Assembly: GCF_000689395.1 (NCBI RefSeq)
Contig: NZ_HG966617.1
Coordinates: 754,753-818,752 of the forward strand
Direction: 5' to 3'
Length of the DNA stretch: 64,000 nt
Source: Candidatus Phaeomarinobacter ectocarpi
Lineage (GTDB): Bacteria; Pseudomonadota; Alphaproteobacteria; CGMCC-115125
The notes below the pieces were generated by a model. That model had not been told where the DNA came from. It saw nothing but the letters and a program-made list of their open reading frames with translations, and made no database searches. Positions 13,957-23,366 of this stretch are shown here, piece by piece. A program made the position numbers and the translations under genes. How positions within the stretch are numbered: the stretch's first letter is position 1; each line of letters opens with the position of its first letter.

Positions 13957-14793
13957 ATGGCGGGTGAGCGAAAGACTGGCCGGCGGGGTAGGAAAACAGC
14001 CGATTTGCGCACACCGACTTCGCGTTCAGATGATGCGGTGACGCTTCTGCCGCCGGCGTCTCGGCTGTTGGCGCAGATAGGATCGTTCTCGAGTTACAAT
14101 CAGGTTGTGAATGTGCTTGAGGCGATCCTCCAGTCTATGGGCGTTGATGGTGTGCTCTACTTTTCGTGCAGGCGTGAGGCCTGGGCGACGGCGCAGTCCA
14201 ATGACTACCTCATTACCACCCGCGGGCCGCGGCATATGAAGCCGTATGAGGCGATGTATTTGTGGAAAGGATACAAGGACACCGACCTTGCCCTTGCCGC
14301 GATTGCGAAAGCGACAGCCCCTTTCACGACGGCTGAAGTCTACACGCCTGACAAGGTCACGAGGGATCAAAAGGATCTGGTGGACCTTACGGAACATTAT
14401 CATCTCAACTTTGATCTTTTCGTTCCGGTGCATACGCCTGGGCGCATTCAGGTCGTTTATTTCTTTGTGTTGGGTGACAATGAGGCCGACGAAGCCCGCA
14501 TCTCGGTTCAGCGACAGGACCTGATCGACCTGGCGCGCGTGTTTGCCTTGGTGGTTCATGAGTTCATCGGCATTGATCTTGAACAGGTGCCCAATGTGCA
14601 ATTGTCTGTGCGCGAGCTTGAGTGCCTGTCGCTGTTGGGCAGCGGGTCTTCAAACCCGGAAATGGCCAAGAGCCTGAATATCAGTGAGCGGACCATCAAG
14701 TTTCATGTGAAAAATCTCATGAAGAAGCTGGGAGCTTCCTCGCGCCTTGAAGTGGTCGCGATTGCCGCACGCACCAATCTCATGAGCAATTAG
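13957..14793 (+). CDS. LuxR-family regulator with autoinducer-binding-like domain (LuxR solo)
   Basis: A 278-aa protein. After a basic leader (KTGRRGRKTADLR) residues ~45-195 have the size and pattern of an autoinducer-binding domain; the C-terminus (~210-275) is a GerE/LuxR HTH with LSVRELECLSLLGSGSSNPE, then LNISERTIKFHVKNLMKKLG. In the ligand domain, the stretch KGYKDTDLALAAIAKATAPFTTAE keeps the conserved Asp but has Leu where the Asp-Pro proline is expected and Thr where the conserved Trp of the PFxW motif is expected, so the ligand may not be a standard acyl-homoserine lactone. No luxI-type synthase is in the window. It is followed by a terminator and then a lux-box-like palindrome before the 1604-aa gene. 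Confidence 0.85.
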   Translation: MAGERKTGRRGRKTADLRTPTSRSDDAVTLLPPASRLLAQIGSFSSYNQVVNVLEAILQSMGVDGVLYFSCRREAWATAQSNDYLITTRGPRHMKPYEAMYLWKGYKDTDLALAAIAKATAPFTTAEVYTPDKVTRDQKDLVDLTEHYHLNFDLFVPVHTPGRIQVVYFFVLGDNEADEARISVQRQDLIDLARVFALVVHEFIGIDLEQVPNVQLSVRELECLSLLGSGSSNPEMAKSLNISERTIKFHVKNLMKKLGASSRLEVVAIAARTNLMSN

Positions 14794-14843: not shown

Positions 14844-14861
14844 CCTGTCCTATTGGACAGG
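14844..14861. promoter_or_regulatory. lux-box-like operator
   Basis: CCTGTCCTATTGGACAGG is a perfect 18-bp palindrome with the arrangement CCTGT-N8-ACAGG, the same half-sites and spacing as the Vibrio fischeri lux box core. It sits 51 bp after the LuxR-type gene and 82 bp before the GTG of the 1604-aa gene. This position suits activation of the downstream operon by the neighbouring regulator. Confidence 0.7.
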
Positions 14862-14942
14862 TGCCTCATACTGGGAATACCCATAGATATTTTCCTCCAC
14901 ATGCGGGTCAAACGTGTGAGTGAGTAGGGGGAATATCTAAAC

Positions 14943-17900
14943 GTGCTGGGTTCAAGTGTCTTTTGTGCGCCGTGCCGAGGCTTGGTTCGCCTGGCTGGAC
15001 ATGTGTGTGCTCTTGGCATGCTCGGCATCGTCGCAGTGTTTGCGATGCCGGCTTCCTCAGCCTCTGCCCAGTCTCCCGTATGCGGATTGCCCAACCAGAT
15101 TGGCGTGCTGTCACCCCAAGAAGCAGCGCAGGCGCAGGCGGGTCTGGCACGCGCGCTCAGCAAGGACGGCTTTACACAGGCGGGTGTCGGGCAGCGTGTG
15201 CTCAAGCAGCTCTATTTCAAGCTGCCGACGGTCATTGATTTTGCCAACCAGCCGCCGATCCGTCCTGTTGGTGACTACGTCATCATCGAAAAAATTCTCG
15301 GCTTCTCCACGGACTGCCATGTGACGCAGGCGTTCTCGCGCGATGCAGGCAAACGTCAGCCGGTGGTGGAGCAGTATGATTTGGTTGTTGAGCGCGCCGA
15401 CAATGCGGACGCGCCTTTTGAAAAGCTCGGCGAGTTTGCCCAGGGCCTTGCCAAACTGCCCCGGCCGGGCGTCTACCGGTTGACCGTCCGGGCCAAGGGG
15501 CGGTTGTCGCCGTTCAGGATTGGGGCCGTGTCGCAGACCGTGACGGTTGTCTCAGCCGGCCAGAATCGGACCCGCGGCATTACGCAGATCCGGATTGATA
15601 ATCCCAAGGGCTCGAAGGTTGTGGGCACGGCGTTTGTCATCGGGTCCAAGCGTGATCCGAGGGACCCCGACAATCGCACTCACTGCAAGACCTATACATT
15701 CACCTCGACGGTGCGGGTGGCGGATATCACCAGTGAGACCAATTCAGCGGTGTTCTCCAAAAATGTCCGTGAGGAACCCTACAGCCGGGCGACCTGGGAG
15801 CTGCGGCGCGACGGGGAAGTTCTTGAAACAGTCGGGCCGCGGGGCAATTTTGTTTTCGATGCCAGAAAATATGGAGACGGCAACTACCAGCTATTTGCGT
15901 CCATCGATGAAGCAGACCTTGGGGGCGGGCCGCAGAACTTCCGGCCGGCTCCGGTGCGGCACATCATTCAGGTGCTCAATTGCGGTGGCAAAAAACCCGT
16001 CGCTCAGAACGCTGCGGACGGTGCGGGTGGCCTGAAAGTTGAGTTGCCAGAAGATCAACTGGCCGATGGCGGTTTTGAGAATGTCGGGGGTGCTCAGCAG
16101 CCCGGCGATCTGGTGCCGATCGCGCTGCATGAGCTGGACGAGAACGGCAAGATCGTCGTTCGAACGCAGCTTGAGCCGGAACGGTTTTTGAAAGAGGCGT
16201 CGGCCCCCAAGGTGCCACCAGCCGACCAGAAGGCCTGCCGCGACTGCGAGCGGGAGATTGCCCGTCGGACAAAGCTGCTGACGCAATCCTGCGAACCGGT
16301 GACGGATCTGATGGAAGCATTGCTGCTTGATGTCCTGTTTCATGATGCGGGGCAAAAGGACATTGAAGCGATCTTCCTCAATGACATTCTGACACCGCTG
16401 CGCGACTTTCGGGCACCGCTTCAGGCTCAGAATGATTTGATGGCAGACTATGTGGAGCGGGCCGCACGGGCGGGCGTTCTGCAAAGCAAGCAGGCGCAGA
16501 CCATTCTGGCAGCTGGCCAGCGCGCAGCTCTTGACCGCGATCGCAAACGCCGGGCGGCGCTGGGCGATGATGCACTGTTTATCCCCACGCTGCTGGGCGC
16601 GGACATTCCCGAACCCGCCATTCCCTTCATTTTTACGTCCGGCGCCGGGCAGCTGGCACAGGTCGCCAAGTTCAGAAAGGAACTTGCAGACATTTCCGCG
16701 CGGGCAGGTACCGAAGGCAACAAGACGCGCACAAAGGTTGAGGCCTTCATTGCCAAGGACCTGAAGGAAGCACGGGAAAAAATTCAGGAGCGCAAAGACC
16801 AGCAGGCACAGCTGCGCGAAGACAACCGGAGCAAGAAGCAGCGGTTGGCTGCACTGTTCAACGCGGGCACCTTTGAGCATTGCCTTGGTGCCCCTCCCGG
16901 AGAGGGCACGTCTGTGCTTGCAGGCACTGAGGGTGACGGGCTTGTGACCGGTCTGCCGGGCATGAACACAACTTTCCCGGAGCACCCCGACCGCGACGTG
17001 TCGCCGGAGGTTTTCCGAAAGGCCGCGACTTTGCCGCCGCCACTGAAAACCGTTGTGGAAGGCTTTGAGGATTTTTTCCCTCTGCGTTTCAAGATGGATG
17101 GCGACAAGGCACTGGCGGCACAGCGCGAGATCACCAAGCGGATCAAGGATGTTGAGAGCCTCGGTGGACTGGTTGCTATTGAAGACTTCTTTGTGGGGCT
17201 GCGGACCTTCTTTGAAACCACAGGCAAGGCCAGCCTCAACGGCATTACGCTCGGCACGGCCTTCTCCGACGACCCGCAGCTCAGGGCCGCCAAGAAGTTT
17301 CTGACGGAATCCCTGCCGCGCGGCTTTGACATTGTGGTGGGGACGGACATCGCCGCCTTCATTGATGAAGACCTGAGAGTGCGCCAGGAAGACAAGCTGA
17401 GTGGTGCGGTGGTGCTGAACCAGCTTGGTGGTTTTGGTGTTGGCAATATCGCGGAACTGACTGCAAAGGATGCAGAGTCGGTTGGGGAAGCCATCGGTAT
17501 TGCGATTGGTCAGGCTACGCGCGACGAGCCGACGGATCTGACAGAAGAGGCGACGCGCTTTCTTGTGGAAAGCGAAGAGCAGCAGAAGATCAATGAGGGG
17601 CAGTCGGCGGGGCTCTTCCTGGCGCTCGACCTGCTTGGGGGGGAAGCTCTGGTTGTCAGTGCCCGGTCCTTGAAGGTCGGCGGCAAGGTATTCACGTCAA
17701 CCGATGAAGCGATTGCTGCTGCAAATGATCTGCGTGCCGCCAAGGGGTTGGGGCCGCTTGATGAGGTTGCTGAACAGGCCATTCGCGATACGCAGAAGTT
17801 TGTCGACAAGGTTGATGAGGCCAATGAGCTCAAACGTATTGAAGATCAGGTAGACGCCCTTGCCAGGCAGGCTGACAACTCTGACGTGCTCGATGACCTT

Positions 17901-19757
17901 GCCAAAGTGGCGGACGGTGACGTTCCGGGAGCTGGCACGGGTAATGGCACCGGCAATGGTACAGGGGGTGGCACGGGGGGTGGCAGAACTGTTGAAGATG
18001 ATCTGGCCGATATCTTTGGCGATGCGGAACCTGGAACCGGCAACAGCAGCTTCCTCGATGAGGTTGTCGACAATGCGGGTGGCGGCCGGACGGTTGAGGA
18101 TGATCTGGCTGACCTGTTCGGTGACGCAGATGGATCTGCAGATGGCGGATCGTTTGGTCTGGCGGATGATCTTGCTGATACGGGCGATGCCGCGCCGGAT
18201 GATGTGTCGGACTTCTTTGCAAACCTTGGAAAGAAGCCCGGGACGCCTGAGGAGAAAGTCGCAGATGCGCTGGATGACGTAGCAGACGAAGCCGAGGCGG
18301 CAGCGCGCGCTGCCAAGGACAAGGCCCGTCAGGAAGCGCTCAAGCAGCAGGCTGACAAAGGCAATCAGGGACCGCCACTGACGCCTGGCAAGGTGAACAA
18401 AGGCGAGGTTGATCTGCCCGCTGATCGGTTGGCGGCGCTGGATGATCCGGCGGGGGGCGTTGGCCAAGGCCGGACAGCCAATGTGGTGGCTGAAACAATC
18501 GGTGATCCCAACTCCGACGTGATCAAGCTGGTTGAGAATGTCCGGGTGGATGGCACCGGCAAGATTGTGTCCAAGGGTGAGGGCGGAGCGGGTGCCAAGT
18601 TTGATCCGGAAGTCGCCGGTGCAATAAGACAGGACCAGTTTGCCGGGGCGGACAAGTTTGCTGATGCTGGCATCAACTCGCTGGACATCAAGGGGCAAGG
18701 GACGGTCAAGCGCATCATTGATGGCGTTGAAGTGGAGGTGCCGTTCTTCAAGCAGGAGCGCTTCCCGGATGGGGCAAAGACCCTTGAAGATATCGAGAAG
18801 GCTGTTGGTGAGGGCAACGTCAAGCTGACGCGTGAGCAGCAGATTGCCATCCTGCGCGAGTTCGACAAGGCGGCGAATGCCAAGCTGGTGCCGTTTGATA
18901 CCAATCCCGGCAACATTCTCGTCAAGGGTGATGGGCCTGATGCGTCAGCGGGGTTTGTTGAGTCCGGCAGTGTGGTTGAGGCCGGCTCGCAAGAATCCGC
19001 CCGTGCGGTGTTGAGCGAGCGGTTGTTCGGCTCCACCAATGTGGGGGCCAGCGAGTTCAACAGTTTCAGAAAGGCAACTGCGGCTGGTGATGATGTTCTG
19101 GCCAAGAGCATTCAAGATGGCACCGCGACCAAGTTTGGTCAGGGCGGGGCGGGTGGCTTCAAGGACATCATTGATAAAGACCTGCGGGATGCTTTTGCGG
19201 ACCCTGACGCTTTCAAGGACGTTTTGAAGAAGTTTGATGACGCCAGGGCGCCAAATGTTGCCTCTGGCGGTCAGGGCGGCGTAGCGGTTGATGCGGTCAA
19301 TGAGGCGGCTGCGCTGGATGCGAAAGCACAGCGTTTGCGCAAGCTGGCGGATGATGCTGCGGACCGCGTGGTGGGAGGCAATCAGCCGGTCGATGCGCAG
19401 GCCCTTCAGGCGCAAAAAGTGTCGCAGGATCTCAAACAGGCCAAGACGGAGCAAAATCAGGCTCTTGCGGAACTTGTGACAAAGTCCAAGCGCCTTGAGG
19501 ATGCCAAGACATCCGGCGCTGATGCGGACGCGATTGCCTCGCTGCAGAGCGATGTTACGAATGCCGGCCGCAGGTTCTCGGACCGTGCGCAAAAAACAGC
19601 AGACGCATTTGATGCTGCCCGCAAACTTGTGGACAGCACACCGGACGCAAATGCTGATGCCCTTGCCCGCGACCTGGCCTCGGTGGAAGCCGGGCTCAAT
19701 GCGCAGGGCGCGAGCGCGCAAGGATTTGGTGCTGTCGATACGGGTGGGGGGAACTGA
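14943..19757 (+). CDS. Giant exported protein of unknown function (1604 aa), island operon gene 1
   Basis: Begins at GTG 14943 with GTAGGGGG upstream. A Sec signal peptide (hydrophobic LGMLGIVAVFAMPASSASAQ, cleavage near residue 43) is followed by a Cys-containing mature protein. Residues ~50-400 look beta-rich; ~410-640 is alpha-helical with a CRDCE motif; ~1000-1085 is Gly/Thr/Asn- and Asp-rich with two copies of GGGRTVEDDLAD (near 1013 and 1047) that resemble linker or acidic repeats; the last ~150 residues are Ala/Gln/Lys-rich and predicted coiled coil. Around 1319, the text FDTNPGNILVKGD resembles the catalytic loop of kinase-fold proteins, with an upstream FFKQERF that could supply a lysine; this is weak. 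No known family recognised. It ends 2 bp before the next gene. Confidence 0.7.
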   Translation: MLGSSVFCAPCRGLVRLAGHVCALGMLGIVAVFAMPASSASAQSPVCGLPNQIGVLSPQEAAQAQAGLARALSKDGFTQAGVGQRVLKQLYFKLPTVIDFANQPPIRPVGDYVIIEKILGFSTDCHVTQAFSRDAGKRQPVVEQYDLVVERADNADAPFEKLGEFAQGLAKLPRPGVYRLTVRAKGRLSPFRIGAVSQTVTVVSAGQNRTRGITQIRIDNPKGSKVVGTAFVIGSKRDPRDPDNRTHCKTYTFTSTVRVADITSETNSAVFSKNVREEPYSRATWELRRDGEVLETVGPRGNFVFDARKYGDGNYQLFASIDEADLGGGPQNFRPAPVRHIIQVLNCGGKKPVAQNAADGAGGLKVELPEDQLADGGFENVGGAQQPGDLVPIALHELDENGKIVVRTQLEPERFLKEASAPKVPPADQKACRDCEREIARRTKLLTQSCEPVTDLMEALLLDVLFHDAGQKDIEAIFLNDILTPLRDFRAPLQAQNDLMADYVERAARAGVLQSKQAQTILAAGQRAALDRDRKRRAALGDDALFIPTLLGADIPEPAIPFIFTSGAGQLAQVAKFRKELADISARAGTEGNKTRTKVEAFIAKDLKEAREKIQERKDQQAQLREDNRSKKQRLAALFNAGTFEHCLGAPPGEGTSVLAGTEGDGLVTGLPGMNTTFPEHPDRDVSPEVFRKAATLPPPLKTVVEGFEDFFPLRFKMDGDKALAAQREITKRIKDVESLGGLVAIEDFFVGLRTFFETTGKASLNGITLGTAFSDDPQLRAAKKFLTESLPRGFDIVVGTDIAAFIDEDLRVRQEDKLSGAVVLNQLGGFGVGNIAELTAKDAESVGEAIGIAIGQATRDEPTDLTEEATRFLVESEEQQKINEGQSAGLFLALDLLGGEALVVSARSLKVGGKVFTSTDEAIAAANDLRAAKGLGPLDEVAEQAIRDTQKFVDKVDEANELKRIEDQVDALARQADNSDVLDDLAKVADGDVPGAGTGNGTGNGTGGGTGGGRTVEDDLADIFGDAEPGTGNSSFLDEVVDNAGGGRTVEDDLADLFGDADGSADGGSFGLADDLADTGDAAPDDVSDFFANLGKKPGTPEEKVADALDDVADEAEAAARAAKDKARQEALKQQADKGNQGPPLTPGKVNKGEVDLPADRLAALDDPAGGVGQGRTANVVAETIGDPNSDVIKLVENVRVDGTGKIVSKGEGGAGAKFDPEVAGAIRQDQFAGADKFADAGINSLDIKGQGTVKRIIDGVEVEVPFFKQERFPDGAKTLEDIEKAVGEGNVKLTREQQIAILREFDKAANAKLVPFDTNPGNILVKGDGPDASAGFVESGSVVEAGSQESARAVLSERLFGSTNVGASEFNSFRKATAAGDDVLAKSIQDGTATKFGQGGAGGFKDIIDKDLRDAFADPDAFKDVLKKFDDARAPNVASGGQGGVAVDAVNEAAALDAKAQRLRKLADDAADRVVGGNQPVDAQALQAQKVSQDLKQAKTEQNQALAELVTKSKRLEDAKTSGADADAIASLQSDVTNAGRRFSDRAQKTADAFDAARKLVDSTPDANADALARDLASVEAGLNAQGASAQGFGAVDTGGGN

Positions 19758-19759
19758 TC

Positions 19760-20611
19760 ATGACCCGCTCACCTTTCAAACTGGCCGTTGTTGCCGGGGC
19801 CGCCTGGTGTGGCCTGACGGTTTCCGCGCAGGCTTTGTCGATTGAGGACTTCGGATCACCACAGGCTTTTGCACAGTCAAACCGCGGCGAGTTTACGGTT
19901 GGCCTGCTTGAGTTGCAGCACCGCTTCGTTGCGGTGTTTGGCGGCAAGTGCGAGGGGCCGCCGATTGAAGAAGATGACAAAAAGAAGGGCGGCGATGGGC
20001 CCAAGCCGCCACCGGGTCCCCCAGGACCACCGGGCCCTGGGCCGGGTCCGGGGCCGGGGCCGCGCGGCAATGGCATTGTAACGCTGCTGCCGGACGGTGA
20101 AAAAGCACTCCTTGAGTTGCTGGGCGTTGAAGCTGACAGAAGCATCCACGTGCAGGGGTTTGATCCCCTGTCTGAGCGGTTGATCGTCACTGAATTTGGT
20201 GGCGGCAACGACAATGCAGGCGATGCCGGAAACAATGCTGGCAATGATGCGGGCAACGACGCTGGCAACAATGCAGGAGGCGGGGGTGGCGCTATCCAGA
20301 CCGCCCAGGACACGCTGGGTGCGCCGCCGGACGCTGCATACTTTGTGATCGCAAATGACGGGTCGATCACGGTTCTTCCTGCGGCTGGCGGGGAAAGCCT
20401 GCAGGCGGGGACGGACAACGCGACGGACGCGTTCATTTTTCCCAACAATGGATTTGTGTTTGAGAACCCGGCAATTGCGCCAGGTCTGTCGCTCACCATC
20501 CCGGTCAACTCCACCCGAGTGGTCATTATTCGTGCGCCGGGCGGACAGCGGTTCCGTGTGACGGTGACTGTCACGCTTGGTCTGGCAACTATTCAGGTGG
20601 AGCGGCTTTGA
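19760..20611 (+). CDS. Exported protein with collagen-like Pro-Gly tract, island operon gene 2
   Basis: A 283-aa protein with a signal peptide (FKLAVVAGAAWCGLTVSAQA). Residues ~70-98 contain a KPPPGPPGPPGPGPGPG tract, and ~150-176 a repeat of Asn-Ala-Gly-Asn-Asp units. The C-terminal ~100 residues (AAYFVIANDGSITVLPAAGG onward to LGLATIQVERL) are beta-rich. Function unknown; the low-complexity tracts suggest an extended linker or surface protein. It lies 2 bp after the 1604-aa gene, and its stop TGA shares its A with the ATG of the next gene. Confidence 0.65.
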   Translation: MTRSPFKLAVVAGAAWCGLTVSAQALSIEDFGSPQAFAQSNRGEFTVGLLELQHRFVAVFGGKCEGPPIEEDDKKKGGDGPKPPPGPPGPPGPGPGPGPGPRGNGIVTLLPDGEKALLELLGVEADRSIHVQGFDPLSERLIVTEFGGGNDNAGDAGNNAGNDAGNDAGNNAGGGGGAIQTAQDTLGAPPDAAYFVIANDGSITVLPAAGGESLQAGTDNATDAFIFPNNGFVFENPAIAPGLSLTIPVNSTRVVIIRAPGGQRFRVTVTVTLGLATIQVERL

Positions 20612-21174
20612 TGTGTATGACATTTCGCCTGAGCTGCACACTTTATGCCGCTGTTTTGTTGACCGGTCTGCTTGCAGTGGCGCCCGGTGCAGATGCGCGT
20701 GGCTTCAGGTCTGCTGACCGTATTTTGACGCCCGAGCTTCTGGCGGTTGGAGAGTCGGCGTCTGTGTTGTCTGACCTCGTGGGCGAGCCATTGTCAGGGC
20801 CTGTGCCCATTCCACGGTTGCATGTGGAGCAGGCCATGGAGCAGGTGCTTGCGAACTGGGGTGACACGCAGTTCCGCCGCGCGCTCAGCACGGACTTTGT
20901 AGATGGGGATCGGCTGGCCGACACGGCAACACTGCTGGTGCCCCGTGACGCGCAGGTACGGGTGCTTGGCATCTCCAACATCGACACGCTGGACCAGGTG
21001 TTGCGCAGGGATGAGGGGCCAGATGATGGCGACCTGCTTGTGTCGCGCGTCACGCTAACGGCCCAGACACAGGTTGAGTTTGTGGATCGCACGACGGGGG
21101 CCTTCCGGCTGCTGCGCGGGACCAATGACTATGTGCTGCTTTTACGCCACCGGTTTGAAGAGGTGGCGCAATGA
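20611..21174 (+). CDS. Small exported protein, island operon gene 3
   Basis: A 187-aa protein. The ATG at 20611 overlaps the previous stop (TGATG); a TTG at 20608 and an ATG at 20617 are alternatives. A signal peptide (LYAAVLLTGLLAVAPGADAR) precedes a mature domain of about 155 residues with no recognised family; the C-terminal half is beta-rich (LLVSRVTLTAQTQVEFVDRT). Its ATGA overlap with the following barrel gene shows translational coupling, and suggests a periplasmic partner of the operon's other products. Confidence 0.65.
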   Translation: MCMTFRLSCTLYAAVLLTGLLAVAPGADARGFRSADRILTPELLAVGESASVLSDLVGEPLSGPVPIPRLHVEQAMEQVLANWGDTQFRRALSTDFVDGDRLADTATLLVPRDAQVRVLGISNIDTLDQVLRRDEGPDDGDLLVSRVTLTAQTQVEFVDRTTGAFRLLRGTNDYVLLLRHRFEEVAQ

Positions 21175-23366
21175 TCTCTCGCTGTTTGTCTGCGGCCGCT
21201 GTGATGCTGGGCGCTTGCGTTGTATCGGCCGCGGGAGGCGTATCTGCTCACGCACAGGGTGTTGACGACGACTGGCTCATCAACGGGTCTGTATTCGGAC
21301 AAGTCGAGTATCGCGATTGTGCGGGCGACGATGGAGCGTGTGCCTTCGGGGAAAACGAAGCGGATGCCTTTGGCGAGCTGGACATTCGCTTCTCCCGGCA
21401 GATATCCCAGTTTGAAAACTGGCGCGGCAGCTTCTTTGGTGCGGTTGATCCATCGGAGTTTCGCGGGCGAAGCGACCTTCTGTCCGCGGAACGGTTTTCT
21501 CTGGTTGGTGAGCGTGGCGGTGGCGCCATTCCGTGGCGCGTTGAGCTGGGGGATTATTTCGGCTTCACGTCCCTTCGGACTTTGCAGTTGCCCCTCAAGG
21601 GCGCACGGGCGGAGATACAGCTTCAGGACAATGCGTCATCACCGTTTCATTCGCTGCAGGTCTTCGGGGGGACGACGGCCCGTAGCTACAATGATGCGCT
21701 GAGCGAACAGTTTGACGACACGCTGGTGGCGGGCGCGTCGCATCTGATGGAATTGCCCGGTGGACTTTCGCTGGTGGCAACGGGTTATGCGGCCAGTCAG
21801 GACACAGCGCAGGGGACGTTGCACAGCGGCGTGTTCTCGCTGGCCGGGGCGCAGGATTTTTCCGTGGCGGATCATGCGCTGGAGCTTGAGGCTGAGATCA
21901 GCGCGCTGCTGGGTGAGACCCTTGATGGCGCCACCAAGCGGAGCAAGGGCGGCACGGCGGTGTCTGCGTCCCTATCAGGTCGTAACGAGACCGGCCTTCG
22001 CTACGGAGCCCGGTTTGAAGACTTTTCCAATACCTATCGGCCCGTTGGGGCTGCGGTGACACCTGACCGTCAATTCTGGGAAACGCGGGTGGGGCATGTG
22101 TTTGACGGCATTGGTGACGCTGAGTTGCGCTATCAGGGATTTCGCGATGCCCGCAGCACGGCCAATCAGGTGGATACAGATACGTTCAGGTTTTCCGGTA
22201 GCTGGGTTGATCTGTTTGAAGGTGCAGGTGGAGCAGGCACCATCGATGCATTCTGGCGCGAGACGCAAAGCAGCAACGGCGCCACGAGCAATGAAGCCTG
22301 GTCGGCTGATGTTGTTACCAATTGGGCCCTGACCCAGGACTGGACAGGGGTTGCGCGTCTGCAGGTTCAGCAGACCGAAGACAAGTCGGTGGCAGATGTG
22401 GATCGGTCCACGGTGCTGGGTGATCTTTCAGCGTCTCGCCGGATCATCTGGGGGGATGTGTCGGGCACCATTGCACCGGGCATCGTGCTGCGGCGCGAGC
22501 GCGTGGGTAGTCAACGGATCATGGCGGCCGGGCCACGTGTTGCAGCGTCTCTCTTTACGGATGATGGACACAGCCTGACAGGTGATGCGTCGGTGCTGTT
22601 TCAGGAAGGACATCGCGGCGCAACGGACACGCGGGATGTATCTGCGCGCGGGCGTTACAGCTTTACGAATGGTCCGCATACGGTCGCGTTGACGGGGCAG
22701 TTCCGGTCCAATGACCCTGATCCGGGACGCTTTGGGTCTGCGTGGCAAATTGCGGCAAGTTACCAGTTTCAGTTTGCAACACGTATTGCCGCGGGGCAGG
22801 GGGGAACTGGTCTGGCCAGCGAGAGAATTTCGACACCTGCCGGTGTTGGCCCTCTGGCGCCGGGCGTGCCGGACATCACCACGCTGGCGCTTGATGGCGA
22901 TGTCGTGTTGGCGGAAGAGCAATTGTCGATCTCCGGATTTGGCAATCCGGTGCGTCTGGGCGGGGCGATGATTTATCTGGGCCGCTACTTTGAACGCATC
23001 GAACAGCGCCAACGGCTCGTTCTGGAAGCACCATCAAAGGCCTTGGACCGCGCCGGGCTCATCATTGAGTTTGCGACCGGGGCGAGGACCACCCGCGAAC
23101 AGACCTATAATGATGTGTTGGACGAGCTGGTTCGCCATTATGGGGCGCCGGAGCGGGTCATCGAAGATGGGCGATTTGGGCCGCAGGTGGAGAGCGACCT
23201 GCAGAATGGCGCTTTCCGCCGCATCGTTAAATGGCAGCAACCCGGCGGTGTTCTGCGATTTGGTATTCCTGCGCGGTTTGATGGCACATTCCGCATGGAA
23301 CTTCAATTCGCCGCCGGCTTCCCCACCATCGCCAATCCGTTTTGGAGTTTTGACACGGTTCGATAG
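21171..23366 (+). CDS. Probable outer-membrane beta-barrel protein, island operon gene 4
   Basis: A 731-aa protein with a signal peptide ending near SAHAQG. The body is a long series of amphipathic strands with aromatic girdles (FGQVEYRD, GELDIRFSRQ, GLRYGARFEDF, WSADVVTNWALT, QIAASYQFQF) and few hydrophobic helices, the pattern of a large outer-membrane barrel. An internal stretch RTLQLPLKGARAEIQL and a soluble segment ~610-700 (LVLEAPSKALDRAGLIIEFA) break the pattern. It ends in FWSFDTVR, without a terminal Phe. The family is not recognised: it could be a barrel exporting or anchoring the 1604-aa protein, but this is inference from operon position. The ATG overlaps the preceding stop (ATGA). 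Confidence 0.65.
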   Translation: MISRCLSAAAVMLGACVVSAAGGVSAHAQGVDDDWLINGSVFGQVEYRDCAGDDGACAFGENEADAFGELDIRFSRQISQFENWRGSFFGAVDPSEFRGRSDLLSAERFSLVGERGGGAIPWRVELGDYFGFTSLRTLQLPLKGARAEIQLQDNASSPFHSLQVFGGTTARSYNDALSEQFDDTLVAGASHLMELPGGLSLVATGYAASQDTAQGTLHSGVFSLAGAQDFSVADHALELEAEISALLGETLDGATKRSKGGTAVSASLSGRNETGLRYGARFEDFSNTYRPVGAAVTPDRQFWETRVGHVFDGIGDAELRYQGFRDARSTANQVDTDTFRFSGSWVDLFEGAGGAGTIDAFWRETQSSNGATSNEAWSADVVTNWALTQDWTGVARLQVQQTEDKSVADVDRSTVLGDLSASRRIIWGDVSGTIAPGIVLRRERVGSQRIMAAGPRVAASLFTDDGHSLTGDASVLFQEGHRGATDTRDVSARGRYSFTNGPHTVALTGQFRSNDPDPGRFGSAWQIAASYQFQFATRIAAGQGGTGLASERISTPAGVGPLAPGVPDITTLALDGDVVLAEEQLSISGFGNPVRLGGAMIYLGRYFERIEQRQRLVLEAPSKALDRAGLIIEFATGARTTREQTYNDVLDELVRHYGAPERVIEDGRFGPQVESDLQNGAFRRIVKWQQPGGVLRFGIPARFDGTFRMELQFAAGFPTIANPFWSFDTVR

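What the first reader, a model, noticed from the sequence alone, without database searches (positions are those of the whole stretch)
14844..23366. Lux-box-like operator between a LuxR solo and a four-gene exported-protein operon
CCTGTCCTATTGGACAGG is a perfect 18-bp palindrome with exact lux-box half-sites and spacing (CCTGT-N8-ACAGG). It sits between a LuxR-type gene with its own terminator and a coupled operon (1604, 283, 187, 731 aa). The regulator lacks the usual Asp-Pro proline and the PFxW tryptophan, and no luxI is near. This predicts density- or signal-controlled deployment of an undescribed surface system.
Basis: partly seen in the sequence, partly recalled or inferred. Interest (0 to 1): 0.8.

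Follow-up and report, generated by a model that had tools for sequence, protein, structure and literature searches.

The report
LuxR-type switch for exported-protein operon
A bacterial sensor protein of the LuxR kind and a matching DNA landing site sit together in front of a group of genes for exported proteins, and the same pairing recurs in distantly related bacteria, so the sensor very probably controls this uncharacterised surface or secretion system.

Summary
The core observation holds, with corrections. The 18-mer at 14844-14861 is real but self-complementary at 16 of 18 positions, not perfect. It fits the published CviR operator CTGNCCNNNNGGNCAG without mismatch. The loose motif CCTGT-N8-ACAGG is at background genome-wide; the evidence is conservation. 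Same-genus G002 keeps LuxR, box and operon. Four Minwuia-family genomes carry an exact CCTGTCC-N4-GGACAGG 62-63 bp before a related operon and a one-mismatch copy 34-50 bp before an orthologous luxR located elsewhere; their paralogous B operons lack it. The LuxR subfamily occurs in 6 of 7 genomes (of 385 in the class) that have the operon, and weakly in 1 of the other 378. Best reading: a dedicated LuxR solo with very few targets, controlling an exported system. Its ligand pocket is altered (W57Y, P71L, W85T, G113D), so density sensing is unproven; two luxI genes exist elsewhere in the genome. The operon encodes a signal-peptide protein with a predicted kinase-fold domain and a predicted 26-strand outer-membrane barrel. 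Counter-example: G197 has LuxR and operon but no recognisable box.

The parts
13957..14793 (+). LuxR-type regulator, 278 aa (autoinducer-binding-like domain + GerE HTH); ligand-domain changes W57->Y97, P71->L111, W85->T125, G113->D153 (TraR numbering, by alignment with the luxI-adjacent LuxR of the same genome)
   Evidence: Pfam; alignment A3; orthologs
14844..14861 (.). CviR-type lux box CCTGTCC-TATT-GGACAGG (proposed operator), ends 81 bp before gene 1
   Evidence: consensus quoted in PMC12114271 and PMC9654057 (passages)
14884..14889 (+). possible -10 element (TAGATA), 22 bp after the box, about the spacing expected for an activator box overlapping -35; CCCATAGATATTT is identical in G002
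   Evidence: sequence reading; inference, the sigma-70 scan found no promoter
14943..19757 (+). gene 1, 1604-aa exported protein (GTG start, signal-like N-terminus)
   Evidence: no Pfam or NCBIfam family at its cut-off, no PHROG or PADLOC match at E 0.01
18390..19322 (+). C-terminal protein-kinase-fold segment of gene 1 (D170 and N175 of this segment invariant in 7 aligned rows; the place of the DFG Asp holds Glu in the window protein)
19760..20611 (+). gene 2, 283-aa exported Pro/Gly-rich protein
20611..21174 (+). gene 3, 187-aa small exported protein (188 aa from the TTG at 20608), conserved partner of gene 4
21171..23366 (+). gene 4, 731-aa predicted outer-membrane barrel (26 strands by my count, residues 35-539) plus C-terminal alpha/beta domain

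Best explanation
The locus is a two-part control module. A LuxR-solo-type regulator (13957-14793) binds, as a dimer, the CviR-type lux box at 14844-14861 and, from a position overlapping the -35 region, switches on the four-gene exported-protein operon 14943-23366. It is a dedicated regulator with very few targets: the operon in the window's genus, the operon and its own gene in the Minwuia family. Shown by comparison: conservation of box, regulator and operon together. Inferred: physical binding, activation rather than repression, and the ligand, which is probably not a standard AHL. The operon most likely puts a large protein with a kinase-fold domain on or across the outer membrane, using the 26-strand barrel and the 187-aa partner; this last step is inference.
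For: Same-genus G002: LuxR 78% identical, identical 18-mer, operon proteins 80-91% identical. Four Minwuia-family genomes: exact CCTGTCC-N4-GGACAGG 62-63 bp before the assumed start of operon A (0 of 2000 shuffles each) and a one-mismatch copy 34-50 bp before luxR (1-2 of 2000 shuffles each), though luxR and operon lie apart there; the four B operons of the same genomes have only chance-level matches. G083: two-mismatch box, 0 of 2000 shuffles. In the 11 boxes found without using the CviR consensus, every deviation falls on a position free in, or outside, that consensus. CviR is first among the PDB matches of the HTH, with VpsT practically tied (7.3e-9, 8.7e-9). LuxR subfamily in 6 of 7 operon-bearing genomes and 1 weak hit in the other 378 of the class (Fisher 1.1e-11; the profile was built from those six rows and the genomes are not independent). 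In 23 genomes of the two distant families LuxR is in 6 of 8 operon-positive and 0 of 15 operon-negative genomes (p 2.8e-4). LuxR tree: the seven form one group, 94/99.
Against: G197 has LuxR about 1.2 kb before the operon but no box better than chance (4 of 14 mismatches, 144 of 2000 shuffles); its luxR frame is short at the N-terminus. G083 has operon and box but no Autoind_bind hit (its contig starts about 140 bp before gene 1). Genome-wide, sites with up to one mismatch do not clearly exceed the reversed-pattern control (8 of 9 genomes have 1-4 sites, controls 0-14), and five further sites in G085, G199 and G291 have no luxR or operon beside them; all five lie inside open frames of 253 aa or more, but the luxR boxes of L096 and L097 also overlap long frames of the other strand, so that is weak evidence of background. 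The barrel tree does not place all box-bearing operons together (AU p 0.075), so the pairing may have arisen more than once. Same-genus G001 and G003 (81% complete) lack the 731-aa gene. No recognisable sigma-70 promoter. No expression or binding data.
Confidence: 0.8

Rival explanations
1. The LuxR is a true quorum sensor that reports the organism's own AHLs, made by one of the two luxI genes elsewhere in the genome, and deploys the operon at high density.
For: Two luxI-type genes in each of four same-genus genomes; Autoind_bind domain over Pfam cut-off; Y61 and D70 retained.
Against: W57, P71, W85 and G113 changed; G001 and G003 have luxI but no operon found; orthologous LuxRs occur in genomes without a luxI hit (G085, G197, G199, G291); a different LuxR sits beside luxI at C1:504470.
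Confidence: 0.2
2. The palindrome is an RNA hairpin (5' leader structure or terminator) rather than a protein operator.
For: The 27-nt RNA folds strongly (z -4.34).
Against: Natural variants break the stem (5 or 6 of 7 pairs in 7 of the 13 boxes) at positions that the CviR consensus leaves free or does not cover; no T-run follows in the window; no Rfam match at gathering threshold; it also precedes luxR.
Confidence: 0.04
3. The box is the operator of another transcription factor, such as a LexA-type repressor (CTGT-N8-ACAG has the spacing of the E. coli SOS box, recalled).
For: The half-sites fit loosely. The five other CCTGT-N8-ACAGG places of the genome were not examined for SOS genes.
Against: It marks the orthologous luxR itself in four Minwuia-family genomes and the operon that co-occurs with it; alphaproteobacterial LexA uses GTTC/GAAC direct repeats (recalled).
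Confidence: 0.05
4. The LuxR represses the operon (CarR or CepR2 style) and releases it on ligand binding.
For: Some LuxR solos act as repressors (PMC4338825, passage); the -10 placement is inferred only.
Against: The box sits at activator-like spacing before a candidate -10 in both same-genus genomes, and LuxR proteins are mostly activators (PMC10134790, passage).
Confidence: 0.15

Closest known systems
CviR/CsuR of Chromobacterium and its operator CTGNCCNNNNGGNCAG
   Same: The box fits the consensus at all 12 defined positions; the csuI promoter box CTGTCCGATAGGACAG differs only within the central four (PMC12114271 passages; PMC9654057 passage); CviR is first, with VpsT tied, among PDB matches of the HTH.
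   Different: CviR is an AHL receptor with a luxI partner; the phmmer match covers only residues 212-270, and the ligand pocket differs.
LuxR solos with an adjacent target (OryR/XccR/NesR with pip; PluR/PauR with a nearby operon)
   Same: A solo regulator beside its target (PMC4338825 section 15 part 1; PMC10134790 passages).
   Different: OryR-type changes are W57M/Y61W and the neighbour is a peptidase; here W57Y/F, W85T, G113D and an exported operon. None of the 11 known (Table 3) or 12 unknown (Table 4) groups of that 2015 survey names such a context, but it left 385 of 657 representatives ungrouped.
Large outer-membrane barrels: ushers FimD/PapC, MtrB, AlgE
   Same: Gene 4 model: Foldseek E 2.6e-9 to FimD (TM 0.28 by query); VIA Z 17.2 over 297 residues to AlgE and Z 17.1 over 443 residues, 6.2 A, to MtrB.
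   Different: No Pfam match; identity 6-13% in the VIA rows named; extra C-terminal alpha/beta domain; no chaperone or pilin family recognised in the operon.
Bud32/PRPK and RIO kinases, PknB
   Same: Fold of the C-terminal segment of gene 1 (Foldseek E 1.4e-4 to PknB; VIA Z 11.6, 187 residues, 3.7 A to PRPK).
   Different: Exported rather than cytoplasmic; DFG Asp replaced in the window protein; modest model (pLDDT 62.5) and low Foldseek TM-scores (at most 0.38 by query in the rows shown).

Membership tests
LuxR solo (QS-domain LuxR without cognate LuxI) | Autoinducer-binding domain plus GerE HTH | tested here: met
   PF03472 E 7.9e-8 and PF00196 E 4.1e-18, both over cut-off
LuxR solo (QS-domain LuxR without cognate LuxI) | No luxI beside the gene | tested here: met
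   The two luxI hits lie at C1:39136 and C1:505223, outside the window C1:754753-818752
LuxR solo (QS-domain LuxR without cognate LuxI) | No cognate AHL synthase in the same genome | tested here: inconclusive
   Two luxI in the own genome, one beside another LuxR; none in the five f81/f83 genomes searched
Canonical AHL-binding LuxR | W57, Y61, D70, P71, W85, G113 conserved | tested here: not met
   Y61 and D70 kept; W57Y, P71L, W85T, G113D by alignment to the luxI-adjacent LuxR; residue list from PMC4338825 (passage)
CviR-type regulon | Operator CTGNCCNNNNGGNCAG | tested here: met
   0 of 12 mismatches in the 13 boxes; two of them (L099, L100) were found with this very consensus, and G197's operon and one luxR-exported gene gap of L099 lack such a box
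CviR-type regulon | DNA binding by the regulator | not testable with these tools
   Needs gel shift or footprint
OryR/XccR/NesR solos | pip neighbour and W57M, Y61W | tested here: not met
   W57Y and Y61 kept; neighbour is the exported operon; no peptidase family in the proteins scanned
Protein kinase fold | Bilobal kinase fold | tested here: met
   The 50 rows shown and the 50 are, by title and recalled knowledge, kinase-fold chains; model confidence modest
Protein kinase (active) | Catalytic Asp/Asn and DFG Asp | tested here: inconclusive
   D170 and N175 invariant in 7 rows; DFG Asp replaced in window, L030 and L020, an Asp present in L043, L044, L050 and L037
Fimbrial usher | Pfam usher family match | tested here: not met
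   No Pfam family for gene 4 at E 0.1

The most novel reading that the evidence does not exclude
The operon is a new kind of exporter-effector system: a dedicated 26-strand outer-membrane pore with a small periplasmic partner delivers a giant protein carrying a kinase-fold domain to the outside or to neighbouring cells, and a LuxR solo with a re-tooled, non-AHL pocket decides when to deploy it. The barrel and small-partner pair occurs in contigs assigned from Alphaproteobacteria to Nitrospirota and Myxococcota.
Probability: 0.2. Interest if true: 0.85.

Novelty: new variant of a known kind. Interest (0 to 1): 0.55.

Why it matters
It gives a LuxR-solo subfamily a predicted operator, a dedicated target and built-in negative controls (paralogous operons without the box), so ligand and function can be tested directly. 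It also draws attention to an undescribed exported operon, found in several phyla, that combines a large outer-membrane barrel with a kinase-fold protein, a fold whose chemistry outside the cytoplasm is hard to explain because ATP is scarce there.

Tried and rejected
Loose motif CCTGT-N8-ACAGG: at background genome-wide, so not used as evidence. Genome-wide counts of the strict motif with up to one mismatch: not clearly above the reversed-pattern control, so not used as evidence of rarity. RNA hairpin, terminator or Rfam element: disfavoured. LexA-type site: disfavoured because the box marks luxR and its co-occurring operon; the looser SOS form was not searched near recA or lexA. LuxR control as a general property of the barrel operon: rejected; apart from three Minwuia-family genomes, the 24 operon-bearing genomes give at most 96 bits to the LuxR profile, and 33 of the 44 rows listed cover the HTH alone. 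One clade for all box-bearing operons: neither supported nor rejected (AU p 0.075). PHROGs and PADLOC: no match for the four operon proteins at E 0.01. Literature searches (listings of 9-15 papers each, open-licence library only) showed no title or abstract start describing this LuxR-operon pairing. VIA-align absences are not used as negatives. A visually picked degenerate box in G197 was dropped as chance-level. A palindrome before a luxR paralog of G418 was noted but not counted. Limits of the class scans: one search scored at most 2 and at most 6 candidates in each genome row shown, and a later scan found a third barrel gene in G291 that I did not inspect for a box.
Full report
What was checked. 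The 18-mer CCTGTCCTATTGGACAGG is at 14844-14861. It is self-complementary at 16 of 18 positions, with perfect 7-bp arms around TATT, so 'perfect 18-bp palindrome' is wrong. It lies between a LuxR-type gene (13957-14793; PF03472 and PF00196 over cut-off) and an operon of four tightly coupled genes, all with signal-like N-termini. The luxR 'terminator' is a hairpin that folds no better than shuffles (scan empty). The genome has two luxI-type genes, far from the window.

Is it more than chance? Counts do not show it: the loose motif is at background (6 places against 4), and the strict one with up to one mismatch has 1 place in the own genome against 3 for its reversed control. Conservation does. 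A same-genus genome (G002) keeps luxR (78% identity), the identical 18-mer and the operon. In four genomes of the Minwuia family, f83 (loci L032, L033, L043, L044; genomes G085, G388, G199, G291; one is titled Kordiimonadales IMCC3096) an exact CCTGTCC-N4-GGACAGG stands 62-63 bp before the assumed start of the first gene of a related operon A, with 0 of 2000 dinucleotide shuffles matching in each. In those genomes the orthologous luxR lies elsewhere, and a one-mismatch copy of the box stands 34-50 bp before it (1-2 of 2000 shuffles each). Each also has a paralogous operon B, whose upstream region gives only chance-level matches (best 4-6 of 14 mismatches): a built-in negative control. G083, of a third family (f81), has a two-mismatch box in its 144 bp of upstream sequence (0 of 2000). 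G197 of that family has LuxR and operon but no box above chance (144 of 2000 shuffles as good), which counts against the reading; its luxR frame also lacks part of the N-terminus. The pattern was taken from the window, so the window's own value is circular and G002 is a close relative; the independent tests are the f83 and f81 ones. In the three f83 genomes scanned whole, the five other sites with up to one mismatch have no luxR or operon beside them and lie within open frames of 253 aa or more; since the luxR boxes of L096 and L097 also overlap long frames on the other strand, this only suggests that the five are background.

Co-occurrence. Of 385 genomes of the class, 7 carry the barrel gene; 6 of those 7 carry the LuxR subfamily at E 1e-30, and among the other 378 only G003 has a match (115 bits against 377 or more). 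Other LuxRs of the genus with a doubled HTH match reach about 162 bits when their whole frames are scored. Fisher p is 1.1e-11, with the caveats that the LuxR profile was built from the six positive rows, that only the best few candidates per genome were scored, and that the genomes are related. The seventh, G083, has a contig that starts about 140 bp before gene 1, so absence of LuxR there is uninformative. In 23 genomes of the two distant families, LuxR is in 6 of 8 operon-positive genomes and 0 of 15 negative ones (p 2.8e-4; one of the 8, G419, is a weak 50-bit match; only G418 among the LuxR-positive ones was not already seen, and its barrel gene has two in-frame stops). Outside these lineages the operon-bearing genomes give at most 96 bits to the LuxR profile, so the LuxR control belongs to a subset of the operon family. 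The LuxR tree groups the seven regulators (94/99); the barrel tree separates window-type from f83-A/G197-type operons, and one clade is neither supported nor rejected (p 0.075).

What the box is. The 13 boxes compared all fit CTGNCCNNNNGGNCAG, the CviR operator that PMC12114271 and PMC9654057 quote from Stauff and Bassler (passages read). Two of the 13, beside other LuxR genes of the genus (L099, L100), were found with that consensus, so they fit by construction. The other 11 were found with the window's own pattern; five of them deviate from it, and every deviating letter falls on a position that the CviR consensus leaves free or does not cover. These changes break RNA pairing in 7 of the 13, so the element behaves as a protein operator, not a hairpin. 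A further luxR-exported gene gap in L099 has only a two-mismatch form. CviR heads the PDB matches of the HTH, with VpsT practically tied. The box-to-start distances (81, 82, 59 and 62-63 bp) and a candidate -10 22 bp downstream in both same-genus genomes suggest an activator site overlapping -35; this is inference, and the sigma-70 scan found nothing.

What it senses. By alignment with the luxI-adjacent LuxR of the same genome the window protein keeps Y61 and D70 but has W57Y, P71L, W85T and G113D; the f83 orthologs have W57F, W85T and G113D but keep P71. PMC4338825 (passages) treats such changes as raising the possibility of non-AHL ligands. The five f81 and f83 genomes searched have no luxI hit. 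Self-AHL sensing is therefore a minority reading.

What it controls. Gene 4 is a predicted 26-strand barrel with a C-terminal domain (pLDDT 79.9, pTM 0.63), nearest in fold to AlgE, MtrB and ushers, without any family match. Gene 3 homologs lie directly upstream of gene 4 homologs in 26 of the 31 loci (coordinates; two more loci hold one elsewhere, three none). Gene 1 carries a C-terminal segment whose model (pLDDT 62.5, pTM 0.65) matches kinase folds (Foldseek E 1.4e-4 with low TM-scores; VIA Z 11.6), with catalytic Asp and Asn invariant in seven aligned rows but the DFG Asp replaced in the window protein. Whether it is active, and whether gene 4 exports it, is inference.

Verdict. The regulator-operator-operon link is very likely real; the quorum interpretation is unproven. 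The regulator is a new variant of a known kind (LuxR solo with adjacent target); no description of the target operon appeared in the listings seen.

Noticed in passing
L100:3082-6058 (G002 C2) and L099:1-5724 (G003 C347): Other LuxR solos of the genus (353, 391, 278 aa) sit directly upstream of exported proteins (612 and 589 aa and a third start seen); CviR-consensus boxes lie in two of the three gaps, a two-mismatch form in the third: a second LuxR-solo/exported-protein module.
   Followed up: partly
window 14943-19757; L030, L020, L043, L044, L050, L037: A kinase-fold segment inside a large exported protein recurs in contigs titled Alpha-, Gammaproteobacteria and Myxococcota beside the same barrel gene.
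   Followed up: partly
L019:5086-5727 (G000 C1:39136): A second luxI-type gene with no LuxR gene recognised within the 10 kb fetched.
   Followed up: no
L148:1388-1405 (G418 C490): A diverged palindrome CCTAGCC-GATC-GGTTAGG about 70 bp before a luxR paralog, perhaps a shifted operator specificity.
   Followed up: no
L023, L024, L025, L039: Minwuia-family genomes carry a second barrel operon without the box, and G291 a third barrel gene, so the copies are probably regulated differently.
   Followed up: partly
L036 and L050 gene 1 C-termini: Two gammaproteobacterial gene 1 proteins share a Cys-containing C-terminal tail that I do not see in the window protein.
   Followed up: no
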